The translations under genes were made by a program, and so were the position numbers. This document shows positions 4,899 to 45,164 of a DNA stretch of 64,000 bases, piece by piece (within the stretch, counting starts at the first letter, position 1; every line of letters starts with the position of its first letter). The stretch covers positions 1 through 64,000 of IMG/VR virus record IMGVR_UViG_3300037963_005450, one strand, 5' to 3'. Under the pieces are notes generated by a model. The model ran no database searches. It had not been told where the DNA came from and saw only the letters and a program-made list of their open reading frames with translations. This stretch comes from a virus.

Positions 4899-5133
4899 TA
4901 CTATTATAATCTAACAAAAATCCTATTGCTACCAAAATATTCATACCAATAGATGAAAATATTTCTATTAAATCATGAAAATTGTGAATTGATAAATGTA
5001 TATGACCAACAATCCAAAAGGGTATGGCTAAATTTTGACTTATCCATATTAAAGTAAACTTTATAAATTTACTAATATTACTTGATATAAAAGTCTTTTT
5101 GATTTTCAAAATCAAACCATCTTTGAATACCAT
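4834..5133 (-). CDS. Small membrane protein (99 aa), start uncertain
   Basis: The frame predicts two hydrophobic segments (about residues 24-42 and 58-73) and a hydrophilic, Asn/Lys/Gln-rich C-terminus (HNQQEEKANCNRKNSQ). With the listed ATG it overlaps the end of the 1958-aa gene by 56 bp and the next membrane gene by 65 bp. Overlaps this long are unusual in this genome, so translation may start further in or the frame may be only partly used. It could form a pair with the 79-aa membrane protein. No family recognised. Confidence 0.4.
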   Translation of the reverse strand: MVFKDGLILKIKKTFISSNISKFIKFTLIWISQNLAIPFWIVGHIHLSIHNFHDLIEIFSSIGMNILVAIGFLLDYNSNELDKHNQQEEKANCNRKNSQ

Positions 5134-8100
5134 ATATTACTGGAACTGCATCCGCCCATTCTTTTGCTAGTTTAAGTTGACCTTTACGTGGCCTTCTTTG
5201 ATAATAAACTTCTGAATTTTTATAAAATTCTTCTGGTGGTTGAGTTAATCCATAATATGCATAATCTACAGTTGAAACAAAAGCTTCAGTTAATTCTCCC
5301 AATGTTCTTGTAGAAGCAACAGGAGATCCTACCATTTGCCATATTTGTTTTATACCATCTGGTGTAAACCATGCAAATTGTATTAATTCTTTATAAGCTC
5401 TATCTGCTTGATAAACTGTAGCATTTTTAAGCCTTCTCATTTCTGGTGAATCGTCATCATCATCTTCCCATAAACCTTTTAATATACTTGCTAATGTAAG
5501 TGTAGTTATCATTATAGCTACTTCACCGGCTGTTCTATATAGATTTAAAACTTTCATTTTAGCTCTATTGCCTTCACCATAATCTTTTTTAAATTGTTCT
5601 TTAAGATTACGCATATTAGCTTTATTTTTCCATAACCACTTAGTCATTTGTAATACAGTTGTATAACGGCCTTCTAACCAACCAAGATTTTCATCAAAAT
5701 ATTCAGATCTATATCTTGCTTTAATAGCCGGAACAACCCACTTATGAAATTGAGCTAATAACTCACCACCCCAATGTGCTTGAATTACCATTCTATCTTC
5801 ATGAGCATAGTTACCGTGTATTTGTTTATTTACCTCACGTATTTTATTTCTAAATTGATATCTCCAATCATCTGTAAAATCTTTCCACTGCCTTTCCGCA
5901 TTATTTGGATTAGCACTATTACGTTCTCCTACTTGATCATAACCTTCTTTTAATTTTAATTTATGAGTAACTGAATCAAATTCCATAGCATCCCATAAAC
6001 TTAATGTTTCTCCGTTTGGCCCATCTTCACTTCTTCTAACTTGAACATCCATAATCATGGCCATTCCTACTTTAGTTTGTACATTATATTCCGCACCATC
6101 TTGTAGTAAGTAACCTAAATCCATAAGTTTAGAAAACAAACCTTTTTTTCCATTATAACCTGATTCACGGATATCTGCAGTATTATCCATCATTCTAAAT
6201 AATTCAACAAAAGCTTCATATTTTGATTGTGGTTCATACTGATCATATTGACCTGATGTAAAATTTTTTCCAGCAAAAGCAGTTTTTCTTACAAGATCTG
6301 GTAAAACTCTTTTATCAAATTCAGCTGTAGCTCTTGCATATGATTTGGCAGAAAAATATCTTTGTCCTGCCACTTCTATTCCATTATTTAATCTTGCAAT
6401 AACATAGTTATTTATATTTCCAAATGGGTTCCATGCAACATATGACAATGAAGAATATCTAATTAATTTAGATACTATTTTATCACCGGTAGATTTACTC
6501 ATTGCGTCATTGTTATAGTAAACCATGCTTAACCATTTTTTTGCTCTTTTATAAACAAGTGAATCTGTACCTTTAACTTCTCCAATTCTTTCTTTTCTAC
6601 CTTTTACATATGCTGTAACAACATTGTCACTTGTTGTATAAGTTCTTTTTTCTATTACTTTAAGAAAAGCATTTAATGTATCTTCTGCTTGGCCCATAAC
6701 TTCATAATTTTCTGCCATTGCAGTAAATCTTAATAAACTATCCGCCATATCTTTACTTAACTCTTCTCTTGTAGGAACTTGTCTTATTTTAGCTTCTTCT
6801 CCTTTTAGGATTGCCATTTCTTTTTCATAGTTTTCAAATGTTATCCCATTAACACCTCCCTTTTGATATCTTTCTTCTAATGCTTCTATATCATCAAGAA
6901 TTTTTTTCAATTGTTCTTCTGTTCTTGGGCTACCTGTATAAAATATAGGTAACTGATCAGTTAAATTACCTTGTTCATCTAAAACTACTCTTTTACTATG
7001 TGCAGTACTTGTAAAAAAATCTTTAGTACCCCTACTCATTTTAGTCCATAGATTAGCTACTACATTTGGTTTTGCTTTTAAGCTTTCAAAGAAAGTATTT
7101 TTAATTAAAGGCATTTTACCTAACATTTTGTCTCTAGTAGTCATGGGTAATTTTTCCAACATGTCATTGTAAATCTCTACATAAGTTTCATAAAATGCTT
7201 TTCTAGCTTCTCCTAAAGCATCTGTAGGATTCATAATTTCTTGATATTTTTTACTTAACTGTGATCTAGATACACCGTTATCATCATAATAACTTTCTTG
7301 TATTTTTACAAACTTTCTTTTAGGGAAATATCTTGTAGGAACTTCATAAACTTTTCCTGTAAATTCACCATTAATATATTCTGCTTTAGTAAGCCCATCT
7401 CTTTGATCATAATATTTAACTAAATATTTTTGATACTTTGCGTGAGATATTCCCGGCTTTGCTTCCCAATGTCCATGATTGTCTCCTACTTGTACATATC
7501 TTTCATGTTCTAATCTTGCATTTATAAATTCATCATCATAATAATGATATTTACCTTTTCTTAATTTACCGCCCTCTGTATATTCAGCTCTCATAAATAA
7601 AGCAAATTCTGTTTTTCTTTTATGAAGCTCTTTATTATATTTAATATTTTCTCTACCTTCTGGAGTTCTTTTAGCTTCTTCTATATCATCAATCTCTCTA
7701 TATTGTAGTGGTGTACCACTAGCGTCAGATAGTTTGCTATATAATTCTTTCTTTTGATTATAATATTGTTGACCAATTTTTTGAACAATCATTCCTGTTG
7801 GAACACCTTCTTCATCAAATTCTAACATATAATCATAAAATTCATTTTGATCATTTCCTGGAGATAGTTTAGCTAAAGCTGAAGCAGCTTGTCTTATTCT
7901 ATATTCTCTATTAGCAATATTATCTAAAACTTGTTGGCGTTTTGCTTTAAATATTTTATCCATTAATGCTAGCAATGTATCTTTTGATGTAGATAAATCA
8001 TATGTCCCATATTCAAAAAGACCTATATCTTCACCTAATTTTAATACTTGATCTAAAGTAGCATCATCTAAATCTTCTCTATTACTATTTTCTTTTACAT

Positions 8101-10954
8101 ATGTTCTAACATAATTTTCAATAGCTCTATCTATAAGACCTTGTACTACTTCTCCGCCTGATTTTTCATAACCACCTATATCTTGAAGTCTTTTTTCTAA
8201 TGTTAATAAAAGCTTCATTTGTGAATTGTTTAGATCTTCAGACCCTTTTAAATTTCTTAAACCACTATAGCTAGTAATAAACTTTTCAAAATTTAAAGCA
8301 TAATTAATATACTTTTGGGAATTATAATTTTTTGGATCATTCATAAATTTTATAAATGTATCCATTTCTCTTATAGAATCTATTAAAAGTCTAGTTAATT
8401 CACCAGACATTCTTTTATTATCTCCACCTACTATAGTTGCTACTTCTATAGCTGCTATTTTATCATCAATTAATTCAATAGCTTCTGCTCTTGTTTTATC
8501 TAATGTAATTGCAGATCTTAATTGTAATAATGCGTCTTTTCTTTTAATTAATCCTTGTTTAAAATCTTGCAATGCTGTAAAAATAGTATTGTATTCTGTA
8601 TGACCATTAGCATCAGTAATATCTTCAGGTAAACCTTCTTGTGCATCTACATAACCATCTTTTAAAGGCCCTTCATCACTTTGATCAATTATTTCTTGCA
8701 TTCTTTTAGCACTTAACATGCTTGTATCAATAGGAATTAATTCATTTATTAGATCTTCATCTTGTTGCTCTGGATGATTTTGAAAATATTCTATTTGAAA
8801 AACACCTACATATTTACCATCTTCATTAAAATCTTTTTCTGACCAAGGAACATGGATATGATAAGTTTGTGCTGCTTCACCTTTTGAACCATATTCAAGA
8901 GTTAATCCCATATTCTCTGCCATCCTTCTATAGAGGTTAACTTGTAAATTATGTTGTTGTTTAGTTGTTAGTAATACTCTTTCATTTTTACCTTTTTTAT
9001 CTTTTTTTCTTATTTTATTACCTGCATCATCTAAAACATATTGCCCATCTTTAGTTTCATATAATAATTTAGAATCTTCTGCCACAGGATAAGTATTTGT
9101 ACTGTATGCAGGACTCTTAGAAAATTTATCAAGTTTTTTAACTGAATTTTTACTGGTTTTTAAATCTATAATTCTTATTTCACCTCTAGTATTTATTACC
9201 ATTAAATCTACAGTACCTGCTGTTTTTGTTTTTTCATCAAATAAAATTACTTGAGGTAAAACAATATTTTGATCTCTTTCACTAACACTTCCTGTTTCTG
9301 CTTTTATTCCTAATACAGCTACTTTTAATTGATTAAAAGCGTCTCTTGCAATATCAGCATCTAATATTGTTAATTTATCTTGTATATCTTCTAAAGTTAA
9401 TCCTGCAGCTATACCATCTGCAATTGCATCAAAATCATTTCCTAAATCAAGAGATATCCTTTTATCTATTCTTTGTTGTTCAGGCATTGTCCCTTTAATA
9501 ACAGTTGTTGCTGATGTATATTTTTCACCAGTTTCTACATTATAATATGTATGATCTGCTTTATTTAATACTATAATAGTTTTGCCGTCTCTTGCCCCGG
9601 TTGCTGTTAGAAAATCAAAATCTCCTTCAGGAGTAGTATATTCAGTTTTTTCTTGAGGTTTTAAAGCTACAGTATGAAATAATTGTGAAACAACTTTTTG
9701 TTGTAATTCATTTCCTCTTAACATTGCCGCTTTAACAATGCTTGTTTTTTCAGGTGATAAAGAATATTGAACTTTATTTACTTTATCTTTTCTTGATAAT
9801 GCTAAATTAAATGAAATATCAGATGTATTTAATAATCTGGCAATATCAGATAATGTTGCATTTTCAGATATTGATTCAACTCTAACCCCTCTTAATTTTT
9901 TACCACTAATATATTGATGTAAATCTTTTAATATTGTCATAAAAAAATCAAAAAGATCTTTTATCATTGTCATCCAACTTTCTGTCGGATTGTTTTCATA
10001 CTCTTTATTAAAATGTCTAGATAAAGCCTGTGTTACAATTTCTCTATTTATTTGAGTTTGATCAAAAAATACATCATCACTTGTTCTATATGCATTTTCA
10101 ATTTTAACAACCATTTCAGGAAACATTTCTCTTGCTTCTGATAATAATCCATTAAATAAAGTTTCATTTTGTGAAGCCACAGCATTAATAAAAGGATGCA
10201 ACATTTCTTCAATTGCAATTTCATTATTTACTCGTCCCTGTATTAAAATTACTTTCCCTCTATAGTAAAAGGAGTTTACCTGGTTAAATTTATTTTTATT
10301 TAACCCTCTTATATCTTGTGGTAATGATTCAAAATATCTACGTGCTTTTTCTTTACTTACTACTTCTACTTCTACTTGTGGAAACATTTGCATCATATGA
10401 TCTAATATTGCCATAGTATTAGGTGACATTTTTCTAGAAGCTTTTTTACCAATATTTATAACATCTTTTGGTTTAACAGCACTTTCGTTAATGTCTAATC
10501 TAATAGTTCTAGTAGTATTTACAGGAGTAAAATAATTATAAGGAATATTGTGAAATTGCAAATACTTTATAACTTTCTTAAAATTATCACTTGCTACTTT
10601 TCTTGCTTGTTCATTATTTAATATTTGTCCTTTCTCTGCTCTAAATATATAAGGGGCTCCTTCTTTAGGTGTATTTTGCACAAAGATTTTTAATTCACCA
10701 TTTATAGTTCTTCTTTGTACTAATCCTTGTTTTTTTAAATTTCCAATTAAAGCTTCATTAAATTCTTTTTGTTTTAATGAATACACAGCTGCTTTATTAT
10801 TAAGATATTCTTCAGCTTGTGCTACAGTAGGAAATAAATCACTACCATTAAAAGTTTGCCAGTTGTTTATAATACTATCTACTTTAACAGGACTTTTATA
10901 TTTTTTTAACAAGGGAGCATATTCTAATGCACTTCTATTTATACATTTAGCCAT
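5078..10954 (-). CDS. Giant virion/cargo protein with PD-(D/E)XK nuclease domain (1958 aa)
   Basis: This is the gene directly downstream of the vRNAP gene, as in crAss-like phages, whose counterpart is a very large vRNAP-associated virion protein. Seen in it: a zincin-like but degenerate segment IEEMLHPF (H253), a RecB-type PD-(D/E)XK core with GTVD (D583), IDLKTSK (D597, K599) and a QVNLYRR helix (near residue 670), then long helical stretches, a hydrophobic segment near residue 1800 (VAIMITTLTLASIL) and an acidic DDDDD patch after it. The C-terminus (VPVIYGIQRW, FYIK end) matches the pattern I recall for this family. It carries a single cysteine, at residue 4. The nuclease may process or degrade DNA during or after ejection. 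It starts 11 bp after the vRNAP stop, so the two are co-transcribed. Confidence 0.85.
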   Translation of the reverse strand: MAKCINRSALEYAPLLKKYKSPVKVDSIINNWQTFNGSDLFPTVAQAEEYLNNKAAVYSLKQKEFNEALIGNLKKQGLVQRRTINGELKIFVQNTPKEGAPYIFRAEKGQILNNEQARKVASDNFKKVIKYLQFHNIPYNYFTPVNTTRTIRLDINESAVKPKDVINIGKKASRKMSPNTMAILDHMMQMFPQVEVEVVSKEKARRYFESLPQDIRGLNKNKFNQVNSFYYRGKVILIQGRVNNEIAIEEMLHPFINAVASQNETLFNGLLSEAREMFPEMVVKIENAYRTSDDVFFDQTQINREIVTQALSRHFNKEYENNPTESWMTMIKDLFDFFMTILKDLHQYISGKKLRGVRVESISENATLSDIARLLNTSDISFNLALSRKDKVNKVQYSLSPEKTSIVKAAMLRGNELQQKVVSQLFHTVALKPQEKTEYTTPEGDFDFLTATGARDGKTIIVLNKADHTYYNVETGEKYTSATTVIKGTMPEQQRIDKRISLDLGNDFDAIADGIAAGLTLEDIQDKLTILDADIARDAFNQLKVAVLGIKAETGSVSERDQNIVLPQVILFDEKTKTAGTVDLMVINTRGEIRIIDLKTSKNSVKKLDKFSKSPAYSTNTYPVAEDSKLLYETKDGQYVLDDAGNKIRKKDKKGKNERVLLTTKQQHNLQVNLYRRMAENMGLTLEYGSKGEAAQTYHIHVPWSEKDFNEDGKYVGVFQIEYFQNHPEQQDEDLINELIPIDTSMLSAKRMQEIIDQSDEGPLKDGYVDAQEGLPEDITDANGHTEYNTIFTALQDFKQGLIKRKDALLQLRSAITLDKTRAEAIELIDDKIAAIEVATIVGGDNKRMSGELTRLLIDSIREMDTFIKFMNDPKNYNSQKYINYALNFEKFITSYSGLRNLKGSEDLNNSQMKLLLTLEKRLQDIGGYEKSGGEVVQGLIDRAIENYVRTYVKENSNREDLDDATLDQVLKLGEDIGLFEYGTYDLSTSKDTLLALMDKIFKAKRQQVLDNIANREYRIRQAASALAKLSPGNDQNEFYDYMLEFDEEGVPTGMIVQKIGQQYYNQKKELYSKLSDASGTPLQYREIDDIEEAKRTPEGRENIKYNKELHKRKTEFALFMRAEYTEGGKLRKGKYHYYDDEFINARLEHERYVQVGDNHGHWEAKPGISHAKYQKYLVKYYDQRDGLTKAEYINGEFTGKVYEVPTRYFPKRKFVKIQESYYDDNGVSRSQLSKKYQEIMNPTDALGEARKAFYETYVEIYNDMLEKLPMTTRDKMLGKMPLIKNTFFESLKAKPNVVANLWTKMSRGTKDFFTSTAHSKRVVLDEQGNLTDQLPIFYTGSPRTEEQLKKILDDIEALEERYQKGGVNGITFENYEKEMAILKGEEAKIRQVPTREELSKDMADSLLRFTAMAENYEVMGQAEDTLNAFLKVIEKRTYTTSDNVVTAYVKGRKERIGEVKGTDSLVYKRAKKWLSMVYYNNDAMSKSTGDKIVSKLIRYSSLSYVAWNPFGNINNYVIARLNNGIEVAGQRYFSAKSYARATAEFDKRVLPDLVRKTAFAGKNFTSGQYDQYEPQSKYEAFVELFRMMDNTADIRESGYNGKKGLFSKLMDLGYLLQDGAEYNVQTKVGMAMIMDVQVRRSEDGPNGETLSLWDAMEFDSVTHKLKLKEGYDQVGERNSANPNNAERQWKDFTDDWRYQFRNKIREVNKQIHGNYAHEDRMVIQAHWGGELLAQFHKWVVPAIKARYRSEYFDENLGWLEGRYTTVLQMTKWLWKNKANMRNLKEQFKKDYGEGNRAKMKVLNLYRTAGEVAIMITTLTLASILKGLWEDDDDDSPEMRRLKNATVYQADRAYKELIQFAWFTPDGIKQIWQMVGSPVASTRTLGELTEAFVSTVDYAYYGLTQPPEEFYKNSEVYYQRRPRKGQLKLAKEWADAVPVIYGIQRWFDFENQKDFYIK

Positions 10955-10965
10955 TTTATTTTATT

Positions 10966-13900
10966 TTATCCTTTACTACATTTTTTTAAGTAATCTAAAA
11001 ATTCATCTTGAGTTTCAAAATCACTTTCTTGAAAAACTTCTACCGCTGATTGATAATCACTTATTTTAGCAAAATCTTTAAGGTTTTTATACATTGCTTC
11101 TGATTCAGCTTTTGGCATATCATCTATTTCATCAAAGAAATCTTCAATTTCAGTAAATGATTCTTCGTTTTCATTAGCAAAGTTAAGAATTTCATTAATA
11201 CCTATTCCACCTTCTACATCATCTCCTATGTTTTCATCTGCTGGAATACTTGGTGTTTCTTCTTCAACTGCTGGTGCATCAGTATATTCAGAAATATTTT
11301 TTGTACCAACAATAACTTCATTTTCATTTGCTTTAACATTATTATTTTGAACAGCTAATTCTTTAGCTATTTCTTCTTCTGTTTTAAATCTATTTGAATC
11401 AAAAGTTCCTTCAGCCATGCCAATATCACTATTGTCTTCAAGACTTCCATCTTCTCTAGCTATTACCCCTCTTCTTACATCTTTATATGTTGGTACTATA
11501 CCATCAAATGAAAATGCAATTGGTGTTGCTTGATTAGATCCTACCGGTTCAGTTTCTATATATTCAGCTCTACTACCTGTTGTTAAAGGTTGATTTGCAG
11601 TTATTATTTCATTTGATCCAGTATTTGAACCGCTCCAAGCTTTGTTTAATTTAAATGTTCTATAAGTAGGGATTTGAGTTAATCTTCCAAATTCATTTTG
11701 AATAGATTCCATTTGCTTAATTCTTATTTCAGCTGGAAAAATTAATTCTGTACGTACACCAAACTTAGTGTCTTTTCTTACAGAATTAAATCCATGAGAA
11801 GCTTCTAATATTGATAAATTTCTTGAAATTTGTTTATTAGCTTTTTGTGAAGGATTTTGATAATGTCTTTCATTTAATTCATTCTTTGATTGATTATCAT
11901 TAGGACGGCCTAATACTCCATTATAAAGATCTATTATTAAACCTGTACCTTCTTCTGTTTCTAATATAAGAGCTGGTTGATTGGCAGCTGCTTTTTTACT
12001 AATTGTACCTTCAGATTCTATTTGATTAGTTGAAATATTATAATCAAACTCATCTTTCATTCTTTGTTTTAAATAATTAAATATTTTAGGTCCATATTTA
12101 TAAACATTAGATTTTTCAGCTTTACTTATAAAATACCTTGGTAATACAATTGGTCTACCATCATCTTTTATTCTTTTAATTTGACTATCAATTAACACTT
12201 TAAAATCAGCCTCATCATTATTTGTATAATAACTTGATTCAGTTGATCCACCATCTATTTTAAATTGAATGCCAAAAGCATTTTCAAGATCTTGAATTCT
12301 TGCATTTCCGGCATATCCTTCAGACTCTGGATAAATATATATGTTTTCAGTATCTTGTTGTACACTATCTATAGCAAATGATGCAGTTTTAAATTTATTT
12401 GAATCTGGAGCATATATTTGAATGTTTCTACCTCTTCGTTTTACATTACCCATAGTTGGTAACATCCAGTTAATAGGGTTGGCATTTAAATAACCATATA
12501 CAAAATCTTTTACCATTTCAGCATGACTCATTCCAAATATATCTGCAAAAGCTTTATCATCTTCTTTTGTTTGAAATGCTTCATGAGCTATATCAACATA
12601 ATCAATATATAGATCATAAATAAATGGGGCCAATGCTGATAAAATACTTCCTGATTTAAATTGTAAACCATCTTTAACCATTACATAATGTGCAATATGT
12701 ATAGCATCTGCTCTTGTTTCTGGATTACTAAATATATCAGCAAAACTATTTTGTATTTTTTCTACTTGAGCTGGTGACACTTTTGTCCAAGTTGTAGATT
12801 TTATTTGACTAACACCTGTTTTATTAGTACTTCTAAATGCAGAATCATTAAAGATAAATCTATTTAAGAAATAATTTTCTTTACCCTCATAGATTTTTCT
12901 TAATTTAATTATTACATCATCTATTTGTACAGCACTATCATTTTCTTTATATATAAGACCATTATTTAATGATGATAAACTAATTGGTTTTCCTGCTTTT
13001 CTTAAACCTTGTATATAAGCTTTCATTGTTACATATGCTAAAAGATCTGTAGATACTCTATTATGAATATCGGCTCCTTTCCATATGTCATTTACAACTC
13101 TAGGGTTTAAATTTGCCATTGTTGTGTTTAATATATCAGTAAACTTTTTAGTTTTTGATAAAAATATTTTTGGCAAAAGTTCTTGCAATTGCCTATCCAT
13201 ATTAACATTATTACCGTGGAAAGTTGAATCATCACCTTTAAATATTTTTCTCCAGCCTTCTTCTAATGGTAATTCAATACCTTCTTTAGTAATATTACTC
13301 ATAGTTAAAGAGCTATATGGGCCTTCATAAAATAATCCTAAGTTATCTATAGACATGTTTCTTTCAGTTACATCTCTAAAATTTTGACCTAGTGTTTTTG
13401 CAAGGTTCACCATACTTTGCATTTCACCTGTAAACTTTTTAAGCCTATGAGCATTTTGCCATTGTTTTAATATTGCATAATCTCTGTGAAACATTGATTT
13501 ACTATATCTTCTTTCTTCAGCATTTTTTGCAGTAAATAAAGTACCGTATTTTCTTTCATCTCTATTAAAGCTTTTCATCTCTTTAATAGCTTCCATTAAA
13601 CTTTCATTGGTAACTTCAACTTTGGCATCTTGTGAAAGATTTTTATCATAAATATTTGCATAAGAAGTTTCCATATCTCTGATATGTGCTTTAACCATTG
13701 CATAAATACCAGCTTCTGTTTTAGATTCTCTATTAGCATTTTCCCAATAAAAATTCTTTATTAATGGATTATTAATTAATAAAATAGAAGTTCTTATTGG
13801 AACACCTAATGCTGTAAGATTTACCACGGTTGCTAAAGCATCTTTATTTAATCCTAATTTAGCAGCTAATCTTTCTTTAGCATTATCTGTCATTGCAGTA

Positions 13901-27354: not shown

Positions 27355-27364
27355 GTTATATGTT

Positions 27365-30300: not shown

Positions 30301-30838
30301 TAGACATTGCATAAATATTTGCATTAGGTACAAATTTAGGAATAGGCATATTTAAAGCTTCTTCTGGAGAAGCATTTATAAAATCTTGCATTTCATAATT
30401 CATTCTTTTAATACCATCTCCATTCCCGTATTTATCTCTTTCTTCTGCATTATCAGAATCTCTAAATCTATATGCTTTTGCTGTTTCTTTTTTTAAAGCA
30501 GCAGTTCTAACTAAATCACCAACAATTAATTCGTCCTCATAAAAAGGTTTAAATAATGCTTTAGCAGCATCTGCATTTTGAACCATTGATAAATCCATTC
30601 CTGCTATTTGTTCTAATCTAGGTGCTAATTCTTGTGCATATTGATCTCTTTGCTGTTGAGTATCTAATCTTGATAAATCAGAATGAATTAACCTACCATA
30701 AACATCATTAATTGCTTTATAGTTAGTTTCATACCTAGTTGTTTTTGTGTCCAATACATCAGATAAAAACTTATAATCTGGTGTAAATGGTTGAAACGTA
30801 GGCATAAATGTTTGCGTTCCTGGTATATAAGTTGCCAT
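27365..30838 (-). CDS. Large cargo (ejected virion) protein, 1157 aa
   Basis: The N-terminus contains the pattern DTKTTRYETNYKAIND, then DLSRLDTQQQRDQYA and AGMDLSMVQNADAAKALF, which I recall as characteristic of a cargo protein encoded just upstream of the vRNAP in crAss-like phages. The N-terminal third is helical; residues about 430-480 are a charged coiled coil (KEKRESEKEKKDK); the C-terminal half is mixed, with Gly-rich loops (GGGPGGMLGG, GYGGGATTSKKA) and beta-rich sequence. No cysteine was seen. No catalytic motif is evident, so a structural or DNA-ejection role is likely. It lies ten bases before the vRNAP gene in the same transcript. Confidence 0.8.
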   Translation of the reverse strand: MATYIPGTQTFMPTFQPFTPDYKFLSDVLDTKTTRYETNYKAINDVYGRLIHSDLSRLDTQQQRDQYAQELAPRLEQIAGMDLSMVQNADAAKALFKPFYEDELIVGDLVRTAALKKETAKAYRFRDSDNAEERDKYGNGDGIKRMNYEMQDFINASPEEALNMPIPKFVPNANIYAMSMDLLKNAWGEGKGMTLTQDFLENGWKIKKTNGDLLTNRVVGYAKTGELDENGQEKLQPITENIAAAFVQKQLMQDPRVLDSEWTKAYVGSREAAENGYVSSGQTLYGDAAKRAWATDRIEFAKLVNDKRLNLAKTNQNKVTTNATSWQTYKDKYGIVKGSPQEMEFLKQIMAIEAANQEVEVATDVNANTKDLDPVQINQTEDLKGLLNQAYGIVISSNIMSEISDASILYAAGTEQMEMEIDQKWKMYKQQEFDLQKKSYQHQLDLNKIIAKANADDWVNQEKEKRESEKEKKDKYWSNWLESLIQGKDFDSGGNMNLGYVPDADGDPNPNAPINQMDNQKVEKEFWNKAIPEAKWDAIKSFYQERDALDNPENQGFFEFYNALEGKTEKMSWSDAKNFFMKNQGALNLMYDDTKRKVEKVSGKDNGFMPNMAESDNFPSIKAKFDNTSGLVQKYTDGGWKKMMVDYGNLMTNKNMTIDGKKSSIEAFEKASIVKPYISPFETMLLEDVLKSDAKGLKYKDKAGTEHTLKKDDPKLFSKIETIYGINVGKLKKGEDDIPLDSWEALEYTKRLLSKERFKELYFNSKTSHYKWVPGHNETTSYVGGGPGGMLGGSKTYWVPGKYEKSAGQLVKEGGGPDQIYDSYAYAINRPYTSAYAGMKDNDGNPLEQPIFSHYQYMQGTSAKDMSAEGGTKYPIFTQYIDPLNLEKDDALMMGEIIKILNGPEATYAVGFGEQPFTIGAATVENPKGSDEARNLVIGTIQNSIKDAQSGSKAQGRNTFSIKYFSGYGGGATTSKKAAYQIQVPKKTAQTLQKYLTGETSDLITNIDKQTVTIMFDKSLDNNPKGLPDLVHSTTDYNIQKNDGVYKWTVPSTGPSLSLNVWKDNGIYYRSFGAVTFDDKTGTVKQHPDVEAGRAAPILNKYTGQPVEKQDLDMWMQGFQKEALQNHNRFIKIPMQTWKKNNPNKTVQYNIPKALTN

Positions 30839-30900
30839 AATACTAAATTACTAAAATTTTTTAAGTTTGCTTGTTTTTCTTTTCACACTTTTTAAGTTTA

Positions 30901-35229: not shown

Positions 35230-35231
35230 AT

Positions 35232-38200: not shown

Positions 38201-38291
38201 ATTGCTTTTTAATTTGTAATTGCAATTCCATTGGTGATGGCATATTTGCTTCACCTCCTTCTTGATATTTCATACGTTTTATTGTGCCCAT
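35232..38291 (-). CDS. Large cargo protein, 1019 aa
   Basis: The N-terminus MKYQEGGE leads into helical Gln-rich sequence and a Met/Pro/Gln-rich linker with MLPKASTG (M146) and later GLPSYQYRGE (G479), both matching a motif shared with the neighbouring cargo proteins. Around residue 225 is a calcium-loop-like DRDGDGHSDG, typical of EF-hand or dockerin-type loops. A Gly/Ala-rich hydrophobic segment (about 580-615) could contact membrane, and the C-terminal half is acidic and Asn/Pro-rich. It begins the leftward transcript that includes the vRNAP gene and has a TTTGTATATTA motif ten bases before the ATG. No catalytic site was seen; packaging and ejection are inferred from context. Confidence 0.75.
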   Translation of the reverse strand: MGTIKRMKYQEGGEANMPSPMELQLQIKKQLEGGAQPEALIAELLQMQISEQDIKVAFESLGMPEDQVIAAIDVAVQQLNAKASEEEMGMMEQPMMPEASPDQMAAQEQMAPMNPNIPQEYGLPDQMMQENPEPASSEDIAQLEAMLPKASTGAFIPPHQRGIGRGGGSLYLPDYGTDQKWETDVLNMPKMPRPLYNNVMMHQNPLANLVTSVADFGRTLFSKKDRDGDGHSDGIFRRDTKEQKSVPGYKSRKKEWRDNKGAYQRHTIDAGLNADGTPRSEADFKENYVFDQTNREVLSKDDVLQRFTDNSSIAFDEETGRYKMYASDNKRDNRRNIRKHDAVDLQEFGQRMKDNPDQAKMLFDYYGQTEKETGIPTGTTLGIDKDGYGTSYAPGTVNPDFYKTAMYENTLKKHGGSLSHGGENLMEHDSMQKDLKKVGPEFLQAFMQVVNQGTPTHTMPDGTVHPGATHEEYLAMQQGLPSYQYRGEFNLNLPKLTDAEKIGLGTGATFGLLSSFTNPSSSISKNIKVKNTAQQMCTDNTCPAGSTDWKDYTNRANMELGIGEDPNRPGYFSSDEFATGNVGKAWGKTLGRTALGAGAGWLTGYGSQWLGHKLAPKVFANPGKLFRQGGGENASNLYEFYEGNLPSIAERADLFKASGLGSGYTGTASENKKLLEYLKRTDNIPLDQDLDEITINAKRNPNTIAPMRPPSIIESSLPEPQLMMSDQSVFSTDNPNSIFYNPTSEQEEEETATETSMIGPTNNNVGPVNNSMLSNTDDDDTDYSNLTTEPGQLTANLLEADKTNLNVDNDPSATFNQVANMGNQNTGDTKNNIPPLQDDDLPISTIDYDGDGVNDLYPKAPMVGPQNQPPADDPEKDLSVDPSVVDSRYGDTAGEKITNWTNRQLDRPGVQKFGKFSEGVVNVADAATDFLRYGKFLQEKNDKSRTQADKIYGMVAATDRGDQDENTGYFIDNKVVQMGGDPFNNLQQMLPPTPTTGEAEVSYDTLLKLIAAGADIEIL

Positions 38292-38301
38292 TATACTATA
38301 T

Positions 38302-38312
38302 TAATATACAAA
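38302..38312 (-). promoter_or_regulatory. Putative phage promoter motif TTTGTATATTA
   Basis: Exact motif copy in the 45-bp gap between the 2275-aa and 1019-aa genes, ten bases before the ATG at 38291. It would give the cargo and vRNAP genes (38291 down to about 4659) their own start. The close spacing implies a very short 5' leader if transcription starts within or just after it. Confidence 0.5.
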
Positions 38313-38336
38313 TATTTATGCAGATTGCCTAAATTA

Positions 38337-41300
38337 TTATTCATTACCTTTTTTAATTATGTGCGTCATTATATAATTTGGCACATGCATTCCTAATTTC
38401 TTAGCATCTTTATAATGCATTCTATTAAGTTTATCATAAACTTTTTCAGCAAAAGTTATATCATCAGTATTATCATATACACCGTTTATGTAATCTTTAT
38501 AAACTTGTAATTTATCTGTTTTTTTATTTTGCTTTTTGCTCATTTCTCCACCAACTTTCATGCTAGGAAATGCCAATGCTCCTCCAACATGTGGGTTACT
38601 AGCTTTATTAAATCCGCTCCATTGGTTAAAATCTAATTTTCCATTACTAGCTTGAGGTCTTGCACTAAAACTTCCTACATCATGATAACCAAATATAAGT
38701 TCTTCAGGTTTTAGTTTATATTTTTTCATTATTTCATTGGCTGTTTTTTTTATCATATTAATTGAACCAGCCATTTCTATTGCCTCTCTTTGACCATTAG
38801 GTCTTTCTATAAAGAAAATAACACCTGTTCCACCAAATCTACCATATGCATTTTTACCACCTCTAGAGTTACTGGTAGGAAATATTAAATGTGTTTCATT
38901 AGATTTTTTTCCACCTATGGTATAACTTTTACTAGTAGGTATTGATGATACTGTACTTTGAAATCCTTGAGCACTGGTTCTACCATCCCAATTTAAATCA
39001 GACCATTTGTATTGTCGTAATGGTGAAGCAATAGAAGCATAATCTTTTATTTCATTCTTTTTTAAATACTTTATATTAACTTGACCATTTTCTAATCTTT
39101 CATATACTGGAAAATAACCATCAGTTACAGTTGATCCTGGTGCTACAGGTTTTCCATTTAATTGGTCAGCAATCATTTTTTTAGCATAAGGATGCTTGTA
39201 TCCATCTGTTAAATCAGAGTCTAATAAAAAATGTGCAATTCCTTTAACATTTGAATATTGAGTGTTATCATCTGATTTACCATAGTTCTTTATAGGAACA
39301 TAATTAAAACCATTCTTAGCATCAAAAGAATTTTGATACATCATTAAATTACCTTTACTATCTTTAACAGTTCCTAAATCTTTATATATAGGTTTTATTA
39401 AATTTACTTTTTCTAGATTTGGTGATTCTTGAATGTTTGTTTCTCCTGATACTCCATCAACATATAAAGGTGTTTCTCCTTCTTTTGCATTTAAAGCTAA
39501 ACGTGCATTAAAAAGATCTACTTTATCCATTAATGGAGATTTTTCTTCTTCAAGATTAATATCAACATCAACTTTTTCTGTACTATAAACATCACCATCC
39601 ATATATTTTACATAACCTCTATGTAGATTATCTATTTTATCATCAATCCAATTCATAGCTATATCCAATGGAGAGTCTTTTTCTTTTGGTTTTGGCGGTT
39701 CTTTTTTATTAGGATCATATGCATAATGATGCTCCCCTAATGTTAAAGTATCATTTATATTAACTACTGTATTATCTCCGGGTGGCATAAATGATTCAAC
39801 GGGCATTGTAATTAAATTTACATCAGTAGTTGATGGTTCTGCTTTATATTCATACTGTGTAAAATCTATCTTAGGTAAAAGTTTTTCTGTTGTTTCTTCT
39901 TTTACAATAGGTTTTGGTTGTTCAGTAATTACCGGTTCTGTTGGTGTATTTACTGAAGTGATTTTATTTGGTTTATTTATAACAGGTTTTTGTTGTACAA
40001 CTTCTTGTACAACTTTTTCTTTTGTAGATGGTACTGTAACAGGCTGTTTTATTGGTGTTACAGGAGGTGTTACAATTGTTTGTTCAATTGGTTGTTCAAC
40101 TGGTGCTATTGTTTCTTCAACAACTGTTTGTTGAATTGGTGTTCCCACTCCTGGAATATTTATTGAAGTGCCTTTAGCAATCATCATTGGATTAACTCCG
40201 GGATTGGCATCTAATAATTCTTTTAATGTAATTCCAAATTTAGCAGCTATTCTAGGTCCTATTTCACCTTGTGAAACATATACACTATCTGTTTTAATTT
40301 CATCACCAGTTTGTTTTTTTGGAAGTTCAAATAATTGATCATAATATGTTTCACTAATACTATCATGTTTAGATTTTAAATATTCTTCTTCCCACTTTTC
40401 ATTATCTGCTAAAACTATTTTATGAACATAATCTTTAGTTTCTTCTGGTAATGATTCTAACCATTTCATATCATCACTATATATATCAACACCTTTTTCT
40501 TTTTGGTTATTTAAAAATTCAGACATATTACCTCTTCCCCAATTATAAGCAGCAAATGTTTTTGCTCTTCTTACTATAGGAGATTGATTGGGTTTATTTA
40601 TAAAACTGGCATTATATAAATGATCCATATACCATTTTTGTACTTTAGTAGCATCTTCAGGATCAAAAGGATCAACTTCTGTTTCTCCTGTTGCTTTTTT
40701 ATAATCTTTAATAACAGCGTCTCCTAATTGAGCTATTCCTTTATAACCTGCTGGAGAAACAGCTTCTGGATCAAATGTAGATTCTTTATACGCTTGTCTT
40801 ACCAACATTTCTTGAGGTATAGTATTTTCACGTTGTTCAAACAATTTTTGCATAAGTTTTAATTGTTCTAATTTTGTTGATGTTGCTGGTGCAGATGGTG
40901 CTGCTTTAGCTGCTATTGCAGACATTTTTTTTATAAAATTTCCATTTCCATTTTGAGCTTTTGGTAATGCCCCACCATATTGCATTCCTTCATTAGAACC
41001 TGAAGAACCTGCTGCTACTCCAAGCCCTCCTGTAGCTACAGCACCTGCAACAACAGGTGTCCTATTTATTAAATCAATTATACCTTTTTTTCCTTCTGTA
41101 GATGGTTGTAAAAAACTTAATATTCTATTTTGTTTACCAGCATCTGATTTCCAAAACTGCATTAATGTCTTTTCATCAATAGGATCTTGAAAGTTTTTAA
41201 TTATTCCATTCTGATATAATTCATTTCTAAGTTCTCTTAACATTGCAAGAGGTTCATGTTGATGTGTAGTTTGATTAATAAAAGTAGTTTCATCTGGATA

Positions 41301-44300
41301 TCTTTTTGTAAACTCTGATAATCTTTTATTTGCAAGTTCTTGATGTTCAACCATACTCTGCCATAAATCTTTTGTTTCTTTATCTCTAAAATAAGACTTA
41401 AAACCTTTATCACCCATTCCTTGCATTCTAGCTTCTTCAATATTTTTTGCTGCGGCATTAGCCTCATCAGTAAGATCTTTCAGCTGTACTTTATACCTAT
41501 CTTGTGGTAATAAAAGATTTCCTTTATTATTTATATTATAATCCTTTTGAGTATAAGCAAAATTTTCAGCGTCTTTAGTAGACAACCAATCATCTTCTTT
41601 TTTAAAGTTTCTAAAGAATTCAGAAGCTTCTTCATCAAATTTTGTCATAGGTTTATTTACAGTTTTAGGACTAATCCCCTCTATAGGTAAACCAGTTTTT
41701 GTACTTTTTACAGAATATGTTCTTTGAGGTAAATTCAACCCTCTTTTTTCCATATATCTTTGAATCAAATGACCAATTTCATGATCTCCAGTATGAGATG
41801 TTATATTTGGAACATAAGCAAATCTTTCAGTATGTTGACCAATACCTAAATTAACTAAATCATCTACACCGGATACATTTCCTACTGAACTTCCTGCATA
41901 TCCTCCTCTTCCTGGTACATTTGTATATTGAACTTCGTTTAAAAGATATTGTATAAAATCATCTGGATCTTTAACTCCTAAATTAATTAATTTTTCTTTA
42001 GCTGCAGGATTGTTAAAATTTTCTATTAAAGGCATTATATGATCATCAACATTTTCTAAAGGTTGTTCTAAATTTTTATAGGGTAGTGTAGTTTGATCTT
42101 TAAATTGTTCTCTTACTTTAGGATCTTTACTAGCTTTACCAGTATTAACTTTTATATTATGTTCAGATATTAATTCATTTTGTTTAGCTATTTGTTCATT
42201 TACTTCAGTAAGGCTTTGGTTATATTTTTCATTACCATAAAACGTAGATGGTTGTGTATCTACTTTTTGAGGCTTTTTTGGTATATAAGTACCAGGCCAA
42301 AATTCAGTATCAACTCCTGTATTATCTGGAATGTTTGCCCAATCTGTATCATCTGCTTGATTTAATGTTGTTCGTGTCTCAACTACTTCATCTGTTTCCT
42401 TTATAATATTAGGTTTTGTAGAACTTGTTTTTGATGATTTAACTGGTTTTACAATAATATCATTAAAGTGTCCTGTGTTATCTCTACCAATAACTTTAAG
42501 GTTTGGCATTCCAAGTAATTCTTTCTCACCTAAAAGCTTTTCTGTAGTCATGAAAAAAGGTTTCTCTTTAGTTCCAACATTAGTAGTATTTATTAAATCT
42601 TGTAAGTTTTGGTTTTCTTTAATAGGAACTTTAAAAAAATCTTCTCCCATGTTTTTTGCATACCTTTCAGGTATTACTATTCTTTGAGTACCTGCTGGAT
42701 TAAGTGGTGCACCATCTTTCCAAGCTCCTGTACTCCAAGATCTTGGAGAATCCCAAGTTACTTTAGAACCATATTCAGTAGGGAAGTTTTTTTGACTTCC
42801 ATAATAACCTTGTATTCTAGATATAGGTGTATTTATAGATTGATCTCCTAAGTTGTATTTAGCAACAATTTCATCTAGCTTTAATCTATCAGCACCTTTT
42901 ATATCAGCTGGACTATGTTGCCAAAGTCTTACAATTTCAGCTTCCTCATCAGTTAAATTAGCACCTTTTAAAGCATCATAGTTTTTAGAACCTTGATAAG
43001 CAGCACTAATATTTCCTTCATTTAATCCAGATTTCCATGCAATAGGTAACGGAGAGTTTCCAGTAGCAACTGCATTATATCCACTTTTAATGGTTGGAAT
43101 ATATTGTTTTGCTGCTGCATATCCACCAGCACCTATACCAAACAAATCTAATCCTATAGACCCTGCATTACCCCAAGTTGGATTATTAGCAAACTCTTGA
43201 ACATCTCCTGGTAAATGTGTAGCTCCGTGATAAGCACCATAAGCATCCATAAGACCCCCAACAGTTACATCCCCAACAACTTTAGTTCCCATTACTTCAC
43301 TAGCTGCAGGCATTACATAAGGTAATGCAGATGCAACCAATGGTAAAGCTGCAACAGTCATACCTGGTTTAACTATAGCATCAGTTATTTGTTGCCCATA
43401 ATCATCTAAGTAATCACCTCCTCTAACACCCTCTATTATAGCTTGTCTTATGAGAGGATTGCTTGATCTATTTGCTGTTGAGCCAAATGTAGTACTATAA
43501 GGATTATGATGATCCCATAATGTTTCTTTTTGATTGTCACTTATAGTCTCCCATGCAGGATACCTTTTTTTCATTTCCTCCTCATGCCTTAATCTCCATG
43601 AAGTTTCATCCCTTTGTCTTTGTGTTTCATCTGAAACAGTTTCTATTTCAAAATCAGGAAGATTACCTCCTATAAATATAGGTTCTAATTCACCTTCTGG
43701 TCCTGTAACATTTTCATCAAAGACATAATGTTTTAGTTGCCCTGCTTCATTTAATGCTCTAAATTCTTCCACCGTATAAGGTTTGCCAGTATTAGGATTT
43801 ATACCTTTATCAGCCATCCAAACAGGAGCAGCCTCTTGCAACTTTTTTTCATAAACATAATTCTCTCTGTCTTGAGCTGCTTGATCATTTTTATTTTTTT
43901 GATCCATAGCATAATTATAACGTAACCATTGAGAATTGCTATATGTTATAGGATTTCCACTTTTATCTAAAGGATTGGCTTGATCATCATAACTTGCAAC
44001 TTGAGCATCAAACTCTGCCTCCATTTCTGCAGGAGACTTATCAAATGAAAAGTTTTGTGTACCTGTTTCTACTCTAGTGGGTTCATTAGAATTTTCCCCT
44101 TTAAATTGAAATATTGGAAGAATATCCCCACCGTCTTTTTTAATGCCTTGATTATATTGCATATTATCTTGCACATAACCAGCATCACCTTGAAGCATAG
44201 CTTGTATTTGATTAAGTCTTTCTTTTTGAGATTGATTAAGACCGCTTCTAGCTTCTAAAGATTGTAAATCATTTTTTTCTCTATTTAACTCAACTATGTC

Positions 44301-45164
44301 TTTTTGTAAAAGCTTTTTATATTCTATTTGTTCTTGCTCTACTTGTTCTATAGTAGGTTGTGGTTCAATAATATCATTCGTATTTATTGTAAAATTGTTT
44401 TCTTCATTATTTGTTGGATAACCCAAATCATGAATCATACTTCTTACTACTATATTTTGAGGAGGTAATCCTTTTAATAATTCTTCAATATTATGTTCAG
44501 CAAAATATTCAGGATTATTTGTTTGTGCCCAAGATATATATTGTTGATATTCATCATCAGTCATAGAATGTCGTGGTAATTTTCTATGATAATTTTCTAT
44601 TGTTGGTGATTTAGCTCCTTCCCAATCTGATTCTCCCCAACTTTTATCTACTATTAAATTTGACCCTGTTTTAAATTTTTTAGAAATAGTTGCTTCACCA
44701 GGTTTAACTAGATCTTTATATTGTTCAAACCCTAAAAATTCAGGAGAATTCATCCATTCTGTACTATCAGTATAATCATCTACTACTGACCATCTTAATT
44801 CATAAGCGTCTTTAGCAGCATCTATTTCTTTATTAAGTGATTCAATATTTTTATTCTCTTTTCTTATTTTTTTATACTCTTTGTACCGTGGATCAAAAAT
44901 GCTATTTATTTCTCCCTTAGATTGATATGAGGGTAGTATTGGAGATTCATCTACATAGTCTGCATTAGGAAAATAATAATCTTTACCGGGATTCATTAAT
45001 GTTGGTGGTCCTACATTTGGTTGAGCCCATACAGGATATGGTACACCTTTCATTGTAATATCATTACCCATTATACGTGTATTTTGACCAGGATATTTCC
45101 ATTGACCTTGCTGATCTTTAACCAAATAATTTGGTCCTCCTTTTAACCCTATTCCTTTTCCCAT
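38337..45164 (-). CDS. Multidomain cargo protein: ART-like, metallopeptidase-like, lytic transglycosylase, LysM (2275 aa)
   Basis: Order of regions: N-terminal cargo signature (NDITMKGVPYPVW) with ILPSYQSKGE (76-85) and ILPIFQFKGE (348-357); Gly/Ala-rich hydrophobic part (about 600-690); candidate R-S-E ADP-ribosyltransferase (R783, S811-T812, E880-x-E882); zinc-peptidase motif HEIGH (H1128, E1129, H1132) with acidic DEEASE (1177-1182) as possible third ligand; ALPKAQNGN (1399); SLT-type lytic transglycosylase with catalytic-type Glu in YKES (E1461), GIAQLG and AAYNWGRG; ELPKKQTGDE (1613); LysM (about 1628-1675) with LLDANPGVNP; Pro/Thr/Val linker; C-terminal domain with GYHDVGSF (Y2160). No cysteine was seen. 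The LysM plus transglycosylase parts fit local peptidoglycan opening during DNA entry. Its ATG overlaps the muzzle-like gene stop by one base. Confidence 0.85.
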   Translation of the reverse strand: MGKGIGLKGGPNYLVKDQQGQWKYPGQNTRIMGNDITMKGVPYPVWAQPNVGPPTLMNPGKDYYFPNADYVDESPILPSYQSKGEINSIFDPRYKEYKKIRKENKNIESLNKEIDAAKDAYELRWSVVDDYTDSTEWMNSPEFLGFEQYKDLVKPGEATISKKFKTGSNLIVDKSWGESDWEGAKSPTIENYHRKLPRHSMTDDEYQQYISWAQTNNPEYFAEHNIEELLKGLPPQNIVVRSMIHDLGYPTNNEENNFTINTNDIIEPQPTIEQVEQEQIEYKKLLQKDIVELNREKNDLQSLEARSGLNQSQKERLNQIQAMLQGDAGYVQDNMQYNQGIKKDGGDILPIFQFKGENSNEPTRVETGTQNFSFDKSPAEMEAEFDAQVASYDDQANPLDKSGNPITYSNSQWLRYNYAMDQKNKNDQAAQDRENYVYEKKLQEAAPVWMADKGINPNTGKPYTVEEFRALNEAGQLKHYVFDENVTGPEGELEPIFIGGNLPDFEIETVSDETQRQRDETSWRLRHEEEMKKRYPAWETISDNQKETLWDHHNPYSTTFGSTANRSSNPLIRQAIIEGVRGGDYLDDYGQQITDAIVKPGMTVAALPLVASALPYVMPAASEVMGTKVVGDVTVGGLMDAYGAYHGATHLPGDVQEFANNPTWGNAGSIGLDLFGIGAGGYAAAKQYIPTIKSGYNAVATGNSPLPIAWKSGLNEGNISAAYQGSKNYDALKGANLTDEEAEIVRLWQHSPADIKGADRLKLDEIVAKYNLGDQSINTPISRIQGYYGSQKNFPTEYGSKVTWDSPRSWSTGAWKDGAPLNPAGTQRIVIPERYAKNMGEDFFKVPIKENQNLQDLINTTNVGTKEKPFFMTTEKLLGEKELLGMPNLKVIGRDNTGHFNDIIVKPVKSSKTSSTKPNIIKETDEVVETRTTLNQADDTDWANIPDNTGVDTEFWPGTYIPKKPQKVDTQPSTFYGNEKYNQSLTEVNEQIAKQNELISEHNIKVNTGKASKDPKVREQFKDQTTLPYKNLEQPLENVDDHIMPLIENFNNPAAKEKLINLGVKDPDDFIQYLLNEVQYTNVPGRGGYAGSSVGNVSGVDDLVNLGIGQHTERFAYVPNITSHTGDHEIGHLIQRYMEKRGLNLPQRTYSVKSTKTGLPIEGISPKTVNKPMTKFDEEASEFFRNFKKEDDWLSTKDAENFAYTQKDYNINNKGNLLLPQDRYKVQLKDLTDEANAAAKNIEEARMQGMGDKGFKSYFRDKETKDLWQSMVEHQELANKRLSEFTKRYPDETTFINQTTHQHEPLAMLRELRNELYQNGIIKNFQDPIDEKTLMQFWKSDAGKQNRILSFLQPSTEGKKGIIDLINRTPVVAGAVATGGLGVAAGSSGSNEGMQYGGALPKAQNGNGNFIKKMSAIAAKAAPSAPATSTKLEQLKLMQKLFEQRENTIPQEMLVRQAYKESTFDPEAVSPAGYKGIAQLGDAVIKDYKKATGETEVDPFDPEDATKVQKWYMDHLYNASFINKPNQSPIVRRAKTFAAYNWGRGNMSEFLNNQKEKGVDIYSDDMKWLESLPEETKDYVHKIVLADNEKWEEEYLKSKHDSISETYYDQLFELPKKQTGDEIKTDSVYVSQGEIGPRIAAKFGITLKELLDANPGVNPMMIAKGTSINIPGVGTPIQQTVVEETIAPVEQPIEQTIVTPPVTPIKQPVTVPSTKEKVVQEVVQQKPVINKPNKITSVNTPTEPVITEQPKPIVKEETTEKLLPKIDFTQYEYKAEPSTTDVNLITMPVESFMPPGDNTVVNINDTLTLGEHHYAYDPNKKEPPKPKEKDSPLDIAMNWIDDKIDNLHRGYVKYMDGDVYSTEKVDVDINLEEEKSPLMDKVDLFNARLALNAKEGETPLYVDGVSGETNIQESPNLEKVNLIKPIYKDLGTVKDSKGNLMMYQNSFDAKNGFNYVPIKNYGKSDDNTQYSNVKGIAHFLLDSDLTDGYKHPYAKKMIADQLNGKPVAPGSTVTDGYFPVYERLENGQVNIKYLKKNEIKDYASIASPLRQYKWSDLNWDGRTSAQGFQSTVSSIPTSKSYTIGGKKSNETHLIFPTSNSRGGKNAYGRFGGTGVIFFIERPNGQREAIEMAGSINMIKKTANEIMKKYKLKPEELIFGYHDVGSFSARPQASNGKLDFNQWSGFNKASNPHVGGALAFPSMKVGGEMSKKQNKKTDKLQVYKDYINGVYDNTDDITFAEKVYDKLNRMHYKDAKKLGMHVPNYIMTHIIKKGNE

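What the first reader, a model, noticed from the sequence alone, without database searches (positions are those of the whole stretch)
5078..45164. Ejected cargo proteins are almost free of cysteine while shell proteins are cysteine-rich
Reading the translations, the 5462-aa protein has one cysteine (C5459), the 1958-aa protein one (C4), and the 1157-aa and 2275-aa proteins none that I can find. The 1019-aa protein has two, and the 1442-aa protein has them only in one cluster. By contrast, the ring, muzzle-like, FN3 and right-edge virion proteins have many, often in CxxC or CC patterns. At even half a percent cysteine, about 50 would be expected in the four depleted proteins together (roughly 10,850 residues). 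One explanation is selection against disulfides or tangles in proteins that must unfold, pass through a narrow tail and refold. Cysteine content could then predict which phage proteins are ejected.
Basis: partly seen in the sequence, partly recalled or inferred. Interest (0 to 1): 0.85.

Follow-up and report, generated by a model that had tools for sequence, protein, structure and literature searches.

The report
Cysteines mark breaks in ejected polymerase
In crAss-like phages the giant RNA polymerase that is injected into the host is almost free of cysteine, except for one cysteine at each end where the polymerase is broken into separate proteins, which suggests that the pieces are joined end to end by disulfide bonds and pass through the tail as one thread.

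Summary

The 5462-aa polymerase has its one Cys 4 residues from its C-terminus; the next polypeptide has its one Cys at position 4. In 139 non-redundant crass-like contigs, 113 of 117 catalytic-to-next junctions carry a Cys at both facing ends, while outer ends carry none (0/34, 0/110). Layouts A|B|C, AB|C and A|BC have Cys exactly at the breaks; fused proteins lack them; break positions differ and Cys follows; genes on opposite strands or with inserted genes keep them. It holds in Suoli-, Intesti- and Steigviridae and in Flavobacterium and cyanobacterial phages.

Best explanation: interchain disulfides replace the missing peptide bonds, making one reducible thread of the polymerase; interior Cys are purged. 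The code is shown; the bond and its role are inferred. No description was found in the held library.

The parts
10966..27354 (-). 5462-aa virion RNA polymerase (fused first + catalytic parts, 'AB'), internally Cys-free
   Evidence: DFDID motif in GADFDIDALY; homologous to phi14:2 gp66 region (A1/A2)
14746..14760 (-). RNAP catalytic motif DFDID, residues 4199-4203
10978..10980 (-). the only Cys of the 5462-aa protein, C5459 (three residues follow it): C-terminal junction cysteine
   Evidence: same position in the relatives
10943..10945 (-). the only Cys of the 1958-aa protein, C4: N-terminal junction cysteine
5078..10954 (-). 1958-aa last RNAP-chain polypeptide ('C'), crAss001 gp49 / phi14:2 gp65 position, with exonuclease-like (PD-(D/E)XK) stretch 465-683
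   Evidence: position and partner
27365..30838 (-). 1157-aa Cys-free putative cargo protein, no terminal Cys
30901..35229 (-). 1442-aa putative cargo protein, eight Cys in one cluster (residues 1063-1115)
35232..38291 (-). 1019-aa putative cargo protein with one Cys pair (C537, C542)
38337..45164 (-). 2275-aa Cys-free putative cargo protein with transglycosylase SLT domain and weak LysM
45164..52111 (-). 2315-aa virion protein in the muzzle position, 38 Cys (contrast)
52122..53018 (-). 298-aa virion structural protein, 8 Cys (contrast)
53963..54634 (-). 223-aa virion structural protein, 4 Cys, ring-protein relative
57185..60790 (-). 1201-aa Cys-rich virion protein, 43 Cys (contrast)

Best explanation
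The Cys-poor proteins are the ejected cargo of a crAss-like phage. The RNAP part of the cargo is one long functional chain (A-B-C) that different lineages break into two or three separately translated polypeptides. Wherever the chain is broken, each of the two facing ends carries a single cysteine (0-8 residues from the C-terminus of the upstream piece, position 3-8 of the downstream piece); nearly all other cysteines are purged. The most likely reason is that the two end cysteines form an interchain disulfide in the virion that replaces the missing peptide bond, so that the polymerase pieces form one covalent thread. The thread can be extruded in order through the portal and tail, and comes apart by reduction in the host cytoplasm, where the enzyme refolds. 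Purging interior Cys keeps these end-to-end bonds unique and keeps the threading chains from tangling. SHOWN: the depletion, the junction code, its polarity and its co-variation with fusion and splitting. INFERRED: the disulfide, its partner choice (A-end with B-start, B-end with C-start), the threading role and the release by reduction.
For: Depletion. Junction code: 113 of 117 catalytic-to-next junctions have Cys on both facing ends within 12 residues; outer ends 0/34 and 0/110. Background ORFs in the same loci have Cys in the last 6 residues in 6.0%, in residues 2-8 in 9.3%, both in 3/216. With splits defined from ORF layout alone: 40/40 split catalytic pieces have N-terminal Cys and 39/40 preceding pieces C-terminal Cys; 27 fused ones with a real N-terminus have none, and the 2 apparent exceptions (L089, L090) have the first piece on the opposite strand. 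Truth table in named phages: A|B|C in phi14:2, crAss001, DAC15, cr111_1; AB|C in cr55_1, cr50_1, cr118_1, TAG-recoded cr4_1 and the window; A|BC in cr3_1. Fused B+C in L042/L043 aligns through the junction with split relatives at 37-45% identity and has no Cys there. Break sites differ (Steigviridae-type versus L156-type) and Cys follows. Not operon- or DNA-driven: in crAss001 the A gene is on the other strand; L055 and L151 have genes of 573 and 356 aa inserted between the pieces; both Cys codons are used. Split state changes about 8 times on the tree and Cys goes the same way in 4.8 of 5 independent pairs, never the other way. The crAss001 virion holds real disulfides in its tail, and partial unfolding of cargo on ejection is the published model (PMC10172136).
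Against: No direct evidence of the bond; no coordinates or mass-spectrometry data could be examined. The gut and some hosts are anaerobic, so oxidation of these thiols in the virion is not assured, although tail disulfides form in crAss001. The threading role cannot be told from a simple staple that holds split subunits together. Other cargo (gp45/gp46 class, the window's 2275, 1019, 1442, 1157) is equally or nearly Cys-poor but has no junction Cys, so threading alone does not require linking. phiKZ vRNAP is not strongly depleted. Only ~5 phylogenetically independent pairs could be tested (sign test p = 0.06), on a FastTree tree with long branches. Four of 117 junctions lack one or both Cys (L054 assembly-like break, L056 start probably mis-called, L066 extra inserted gene, L138 odd tail). 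Alignments A3/A4, in which the terminal Cys is the invariant column, were drawn from loci already filtered for it.
Confidence: 0.65

Rival explanations
1. Staple, not thread: the end cysteines link split RNAP subunits so that they stay together at fixed stoichiometry in the capsid or in the refolded enzyme; passing the tail as one chain is not the point.
For: The same sequence facts. In fused relatives the facing ends are contiguous, so the ends should lie close in the folded enzyme; AlphaFold places the C-terminal Cys at the end of a confident helix.
Against: Assembly takes place in a reducing cytoplasm, where disulfides would not hold subunits together, and the bond would be lost again after delivery; it is most useful between lysis and arrival, i.e. 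in the virion and during ejection (inference). The near-total purge of interior Cys is not needed for a staple.
Confidence: 0.2
2. The end cysteines do something else: homodimer bonds, bonds to another virion protein, a lipid or metal site, or a packaging or recognition signal.
For: Only sequence is known; the segments around the Cys have some shared character in the window family (K-K-C near the C-terminus, C-x-N-R/K at the N-terminus).
Against: Cys appears in pairs on the two sides of every break and never at the outer ends; fusion removes both; one Cys per end is too little for a usual metal site; flanking residues differ between families.
Confidence: 0.1
3. One reading: plain selection against disulfides or tangles in proteins that unfold to pass the tail; the terminal Cys are leftovers under relaxed constraint.
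For: Depletion recurs in N4, T7 and P22 ejected proteins, which have no junction Cys; published for N4.
Against: Relaxed ends would carry Cys at or below the background 6-9% and at outer ends too; observed ~97% at junction ends and 0/144 at outer ends.
Confidence: 0.04
4. Artefact of composition, gene calling or gene-end DNA signals (for example TGT next to stop or start codons).
For: Genomes are AT-rich; genes are often 1-16 bases apart.
Against: 125-136 Cys expected, 2 found; other genes in the same loci do not show it; TGT and TGC both used; opposite-strand and interrupted cases keep it; assembly-like breaks (L054, L125) lack it.
Confidence: 0.01

Closest known systems
N4 virion RNA polymerase (Schitoviridae gp50) and its Cys-free relatives
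   Same: Giant ejected vRNAP without cysteine; the idea that this is needed to pass the tail or the oxidising periplasm is published (PMC2784036, PMC3715699, PMC3915230); N4 gp50 has 0 Cys in 3500 aa here.
   Different: A single polypeptide of the T7-type polymerase fold; no breaks and no terminal Cys. The crass-like enzyme is a DFDxD, double-psi-barrel-type RNAP in two or three pieces with Cys at each break.
crAss001 cargo proteins gp45, gp46, gp47, gp49, gp50 (PMC10172136)
   Same: Same gene neighbourhood and order (muzzle, cargo, RNAP pieces); same depletion; gp47, gp50 and gp49 carry the junction Cys.
   Different: In the window A and B are fused (5462 aa), so one junction instead of two. 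The paper's main text has no 'cystein' and reports disulfides only in the tail and portal-vertex protein.
phi14:2 gp65-gp66-gp67 (gp66 solved, PDB 6VR4)
   Same: Virion RNAP proteins by the record's MS annotation; C1797 is the last residue of gp67, C3 and C2179 of gp66, C3 of gp65.
   Different: Three pieces instead of two. The structure paper (Drobysheva 2021) is not held and could not be checked for mention of the Cys.
T7 gp14/gp15/gp16 and P22 gp7/gp16/gp20 ejection proteins
   Same: Ejected, Cys-free but for T7 gp14 C2.
   Different: No junction Cys pairs; they form a channel rather than a polymerase (gp16 of T7 carries a transglycosylase domain).
Interchain disulfides between virion proteins in general (e.g. 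crAss001 tail hubs and rings)
   Same: Disulfides that stabilise virion parts.
   Different: Those sit inside folded shell proteins; here the Cys are at the extreme chain ends and track breaks in a chain that is fused elsewhere.

Membership tests
Crassvirales-type virion RNA polymerase | DFDxD catalytic motif in a giant late-operon protein | tested here: met
   GADFDIDALY at residue 4199; profile match to crass RNAPs
Crassvirales-type virion RNA polymerase | crass-type order: ring proteins, muzzle, cargo, RNAP pieces; crass TerL, portal and MCP | tested here: met
Crassvirales-type virion RNA polymerase | presence in the virion and ejection into the host | not testable with these tools
   shown by MS for crAss001 homologues (PMC10172136); inferred for the window
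N4-like vRNAP | single-subunit T7-type polymerase fold in one ~3500-aa chain | tested here: not met
   the catalytic motif and homology are those of the crass DFDxD RNAP
N4-like vRNAP | Cys-free ejected polymerase | tested here: met
   interior Cys-free; works like N4 in this respect, not a member
End-to-end disulfide-joined cargo (proposed) | Cys on both facing ends at every break, none at outer ends, none in fused forms | tested here: met
End-to-end disulfide-joined cargo (proposed) | the disulfide exists in virions | not testable with these tools
   no wet data available

The most novel reading that the evidence does not exclude
Crass-like phages rebuild a broken giant protein with disulfides instead of peptide bonds: separately translated polymerase pieces are joined end to end into one covalent thread of roughly 5,000-7,700 residues that is pushed through the tail in order and is cut by the reducing cytoplasm of the host. 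It would be a redox-releasable protein concatemer and a sequence-readable code for the order of protein ejection.
Probability: 0.5. Interest if true: 0.95.

Novelty: categorically new. Interest (0 to 1): 0.87.

Why it matters
How very large folded proteins pass a channel under 50 angstroms wide, in order and with the right partners, is an open question for podoviruses and crassviruses. A code of single cysteines at chain breaks gives a direct handle on it: which pieces belong together, in what order they go, and how they come apart. It makes the thread model testable with a reducing versus non-reducing gel on existing phages. It also corrects gene starts (crAss002 gp33), could identify RNAP pieces in unannotated genomes, and turns an old remark about N4 into a tested rule with limits. 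The depletion on its own is the known part; the junction code is the new part.

Tried and rejected
(1) Base composition or codon bias as the cause: rejected. (2) Terminal Cys as leftovers or start/stop DNA signals: rejected. (3) 'Shell proteins are Cys-rich' as a rule: rejected, MCP has 0 Cys. (4) I first took L156-L170 first pieces as 690-870 aa; they were cut by the 10-kb flank and are 1103-1644 aa once upstream DNA was fetched. (5) A first tree labelled splits partly by Cys and was circular; it was redone with labels from ORF layout alone. (6) Split N4-like vRNAPs as a test: the 13 loci gave no clear split except L205, an apparent break without Cys. (7) Foldseek of the two AlphaFold models (380 aa each) against PDB: no match with E <= 0.001. 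(8) phiKZ as a further positive: vRNAP subunits only mildly low; the first phiKZ region fetched held no vRNAP gene. (9) Papers: no mention of terminal Cys or disulfide-linked RNAP pieces in the held library; Drobysheva 2021 is not held. (10) p-crAssphage NC_024711 is not in the collection. (11) Mapping of downstream break shifts (L048, L076, L088) was left open: insertion and shift could not be told apart.

Full report
OBSERVATION. The counts in the finding are exact. Against the 1.25% cysteine of the non-virion half of the same 115,963-bp record, the four depleted proteins should hold about 136 Cys; they hold 2 (P ~ 3e-56). Codon-position composition gives 125 expected. The contrast with 'shell' proteins is real for the muzzle-like, 1201-aa and small right-edge proteins but is not a rule: the major capsid protein (538 aa) and its 444-aa neighbour have no Cys at all and the portal has 3 in 925 aa.

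WHAT THE PROTEINS ARE. The window is the late half of a divergent crAss-like phage: TerL, portal, MCP and ring relatives match Crassvirales. The 5462-aa protein carries the crass RNAP motif GADFDIDALY and aligns with phi14:2 gp66, whose structure is solved. The gene order muzzle, cargo, RNAP pieces is that of crAss001, where gp45, gp46, gp47, gp49 and gp50 were found in virions by mass spectrometry and are described as cargo that must partly unfold to leave the tail (PMC10172136). In crAss001 these five proteins have 2, 0, 1, 1 and 3 Cys. For the window itself, cargo status is inferred from homology and position.

IS THE IDEA NEW? No, for the depletion. PMC2784036 (2009, citing Kazmierczak 2002), PMC3715699 (2010) and PMC3915230 (2014) say that N4-like vRNAPs lack cysteine and that this may be needed to pass the tail or the oxidising periplasm; PMC10747016 (2023) uses absence of Cys as one argument to call a protein a vRNAP. 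My counts extend it: T7 gp14/15/16, P22 gp7/20/16 and N4 gp50/51/52 together hold 1 Cys in 7,864 aa. Limits: phiKZ vRNAP subunits gp178 and gp180 hold 7 Cys in 1,941 aa, and small Cys-free proteins that stay behind exist (P22 scaffold gp8, N4 MCP).

WHERE THE LAST CYSTEINES SIT. The leftover Cys of the RNAP polypeptides are at the extreme ends, and only at ends that face a neighbouring piece of the same polymerase. phi14:2: gp67 Cys is its last residue (1797/1797); gp66 has C3 and C2179/2180; gp65 has C3. DAC15: 2220/2222; C5 and 2265/2265; C4 (a few interior Cys besides). crAss001: gp47 2339/2341; gp50 C5 and 2404/2412; gp49 C5. Window: 5462-aa protein 5459/5462; 1958-aa protein C4. First pieces have it only at the C-terminus, last pieces only at the N-terminus, middle pieces at both.

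SURVEY. Two scans of IMG/VR with the catalytic region gave 159 contigs besides phi14:2 itself, 139 after removal of near copies. Of 117 junctions between the catalytic piece and the next polypeptide, 113 have Cys on both sides within 12 residues, most often 0-3 residues from the C-terminus and at position 3-5. Complete first pieces have no Cys at their outer N-terminus (0/34) and last pieces none at their outer C-terminus (0/110). Other ORFs of the same loci: 6.0% and 9.3%, both in 3/216. Interior Cys of RNAP pieces: 106 in 758,341 residues (0.014%); 241 of 294 pieces have none. The four exceptions: L054 is an assembly-like break compared with its near copy L055; in L056 the start is probably mis-called and an internal M-V-C lies nearby; L066 has an inserted gene and extra pieces; L138 has an odd tail.

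TRUTH TABLE. Steigviridae have A|B|C; Suoliviridae (cr55_1, cr50_1, cr118_1 and cr4_1, whose genes are open only if TAG is read as sense) and the window have AB|C; Intestiviridae cr3_1 has A|BC, and crAss002 fits if its annotated start is moved from M1 to an internal M-S-C 32 codons later. In every layout the Cys are at the breaks and not at fused sites. L042 and L043, with B and C fused, align through the junction at 37-45% identity with split relatives and have no Cys there. Cys also holds in the Flavobacterium phage Fpv3 (4286/4287; C3), the cyanophage Lbo-JY46 (1552/1552; C4) and csAssE-Sib.

THE BREAK MOVES AND CYS FOLLOWS. Profile alignment to fused relatives puts the Steigviridae break at about columns 1524-1748 of the fused reference, while L156-type phages break upstream of column 1410. 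The region between anchors is poorly conserved, so exact sites are uncertain, but the two sites are not the same. With split or fused scored from ORF layout alone, 40/40 split catalytic pieces have an N-terminal Cys and 39/40 preceding pieces a C-terminal one; 27 fused ones have none; the two apparent exceptions have their first piece on the opposite strand. On the tree the split state changes about 8 times; in independent pairs Cys goes with it in 4.8 of 5 and never against it (sign test p = 0.06, too few pairs for more).

NOT A DNA EFFECT. In crAss001 the A gene lies on the other strand; L055 and L151 have genes of 573 and 356 aa between the pieces; TGT and TGC are both used; assembly-like breaks (L054, L125) lack Cys. 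In the window family the terminal Cys is the only invariant column of the last 380 residues (35 sequences, mean column identity 13%), and C4 is one of two in the first 380 of the next protein; these rows had been chosen among loci that keep the code, so this shows only how little else is conserved.

MECHANISM. Shown: depletion, junction code, polarity, co-variation with fusion. Inferred: the two end Cys form a disulfide that replaces the peptide bond. Natural fusions AB and BC give the order A-B-C and hence the pairing. Because the cytoplasm is reducing on both sides of the infection cycle, the bond would act between lysis and delivery, which points to the virion and ejection rather than to assembly; disulfides are seen in the crAss001 virion tail. 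A covalent thread would let one piece pull the next through a channel that folded domains cannot pass, and reduction in the host would free the pieces to refold. A staple without threading is the main rival (0.2). AlphaFold puts the C-terminal Cys at the tip of a confident terminal helix and C4 in a short N-terminal segment, compatible with both. Confidence: code 0.99, end-to-end bond about 0.75, threading role about 0.5 to 0.65.

OTHER CARGO. The remaining window cargo (2275, 1019, 1442, 1157 aa) is depleted but has no junction Cys, as in relatives, so it is probably not on the thread. gp45-class proteins keep Cys pairs 8 apart in crAss001, DAC15 and cr111_1 (C390/C398; C211/C219 and C273/C281; C224/C232), and the 1442-aa protein keeps one compact cluster; these may be local structural pairs.

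Noticed in passing
window 31885-32043 (1442-aa protein, residues 1063-1115): All eight Cys of this putative cargo protein lie in a proline-rich stretch with a CPCSDGSVSYLCC motif; the same motif is in the 1426-aa homologue of stitched locus L093. It looks like a small disulfide- or metal-bound module in an otherwise Cys-free protein.
   Followed up: partly
window 5078-10954, residues 465-683: The last RNAP-chain polypeptide matches a phage exonuclease family (phrog_298, E 1e-7) and weakly PD-(D/E)XK, so a nuclease may be carried in with the polymerase.
   Followed up: no
window 38337-45164, residues 1410-1671: The 2275-aa Cys-free cargo protein has an SLT transglycosylase domain and a weak LysM, as expected of a cargo protein that opens the cell wall.
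   Followed up: no
L009 (crAss002) 9270-9372: Annotated start of the giant RNAP gene gp33 is probably 32 codons early; an internal ATG gives M-S-C, matching the junction rule and the start of the cr3_1 homologue (MSC).
   Followed up: partly
L201 (cr116_1) 14500-15470: The catalytic RNAP gene is interrupted inside its GSDFD|VDK motif by a stretch that holds another ORF, like an intron with a homing endonuclease.
   Followed up: no
L055 15082-16803, L066 12447-15932: Genes of a family starting M-(S/N)-K-(N/H)-I-E-(V/A)-E-G sit between RNAP pieces and carry one C-x6-C pair; the RNAP junction Cys stay in place around the L055 one. Function unknown.
   Followed up: no
G000 67109-70111: The major capsid protein (538 aa) and the adjacent 444-aa protein contain no cysteine, although other virion proteins of the same phage reach 4-7%.
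   Followed up: no
L007, L005, L008, L012 (gp45/gp46-class cargo): gp45-class cargo keeps a Cys pair exactly 8 residues apart in crAss001, DAC15 (two pairs) and cr111_1; a 420-aa cargo protein of phi14:2 has one 9 apart.
   Followed up: no
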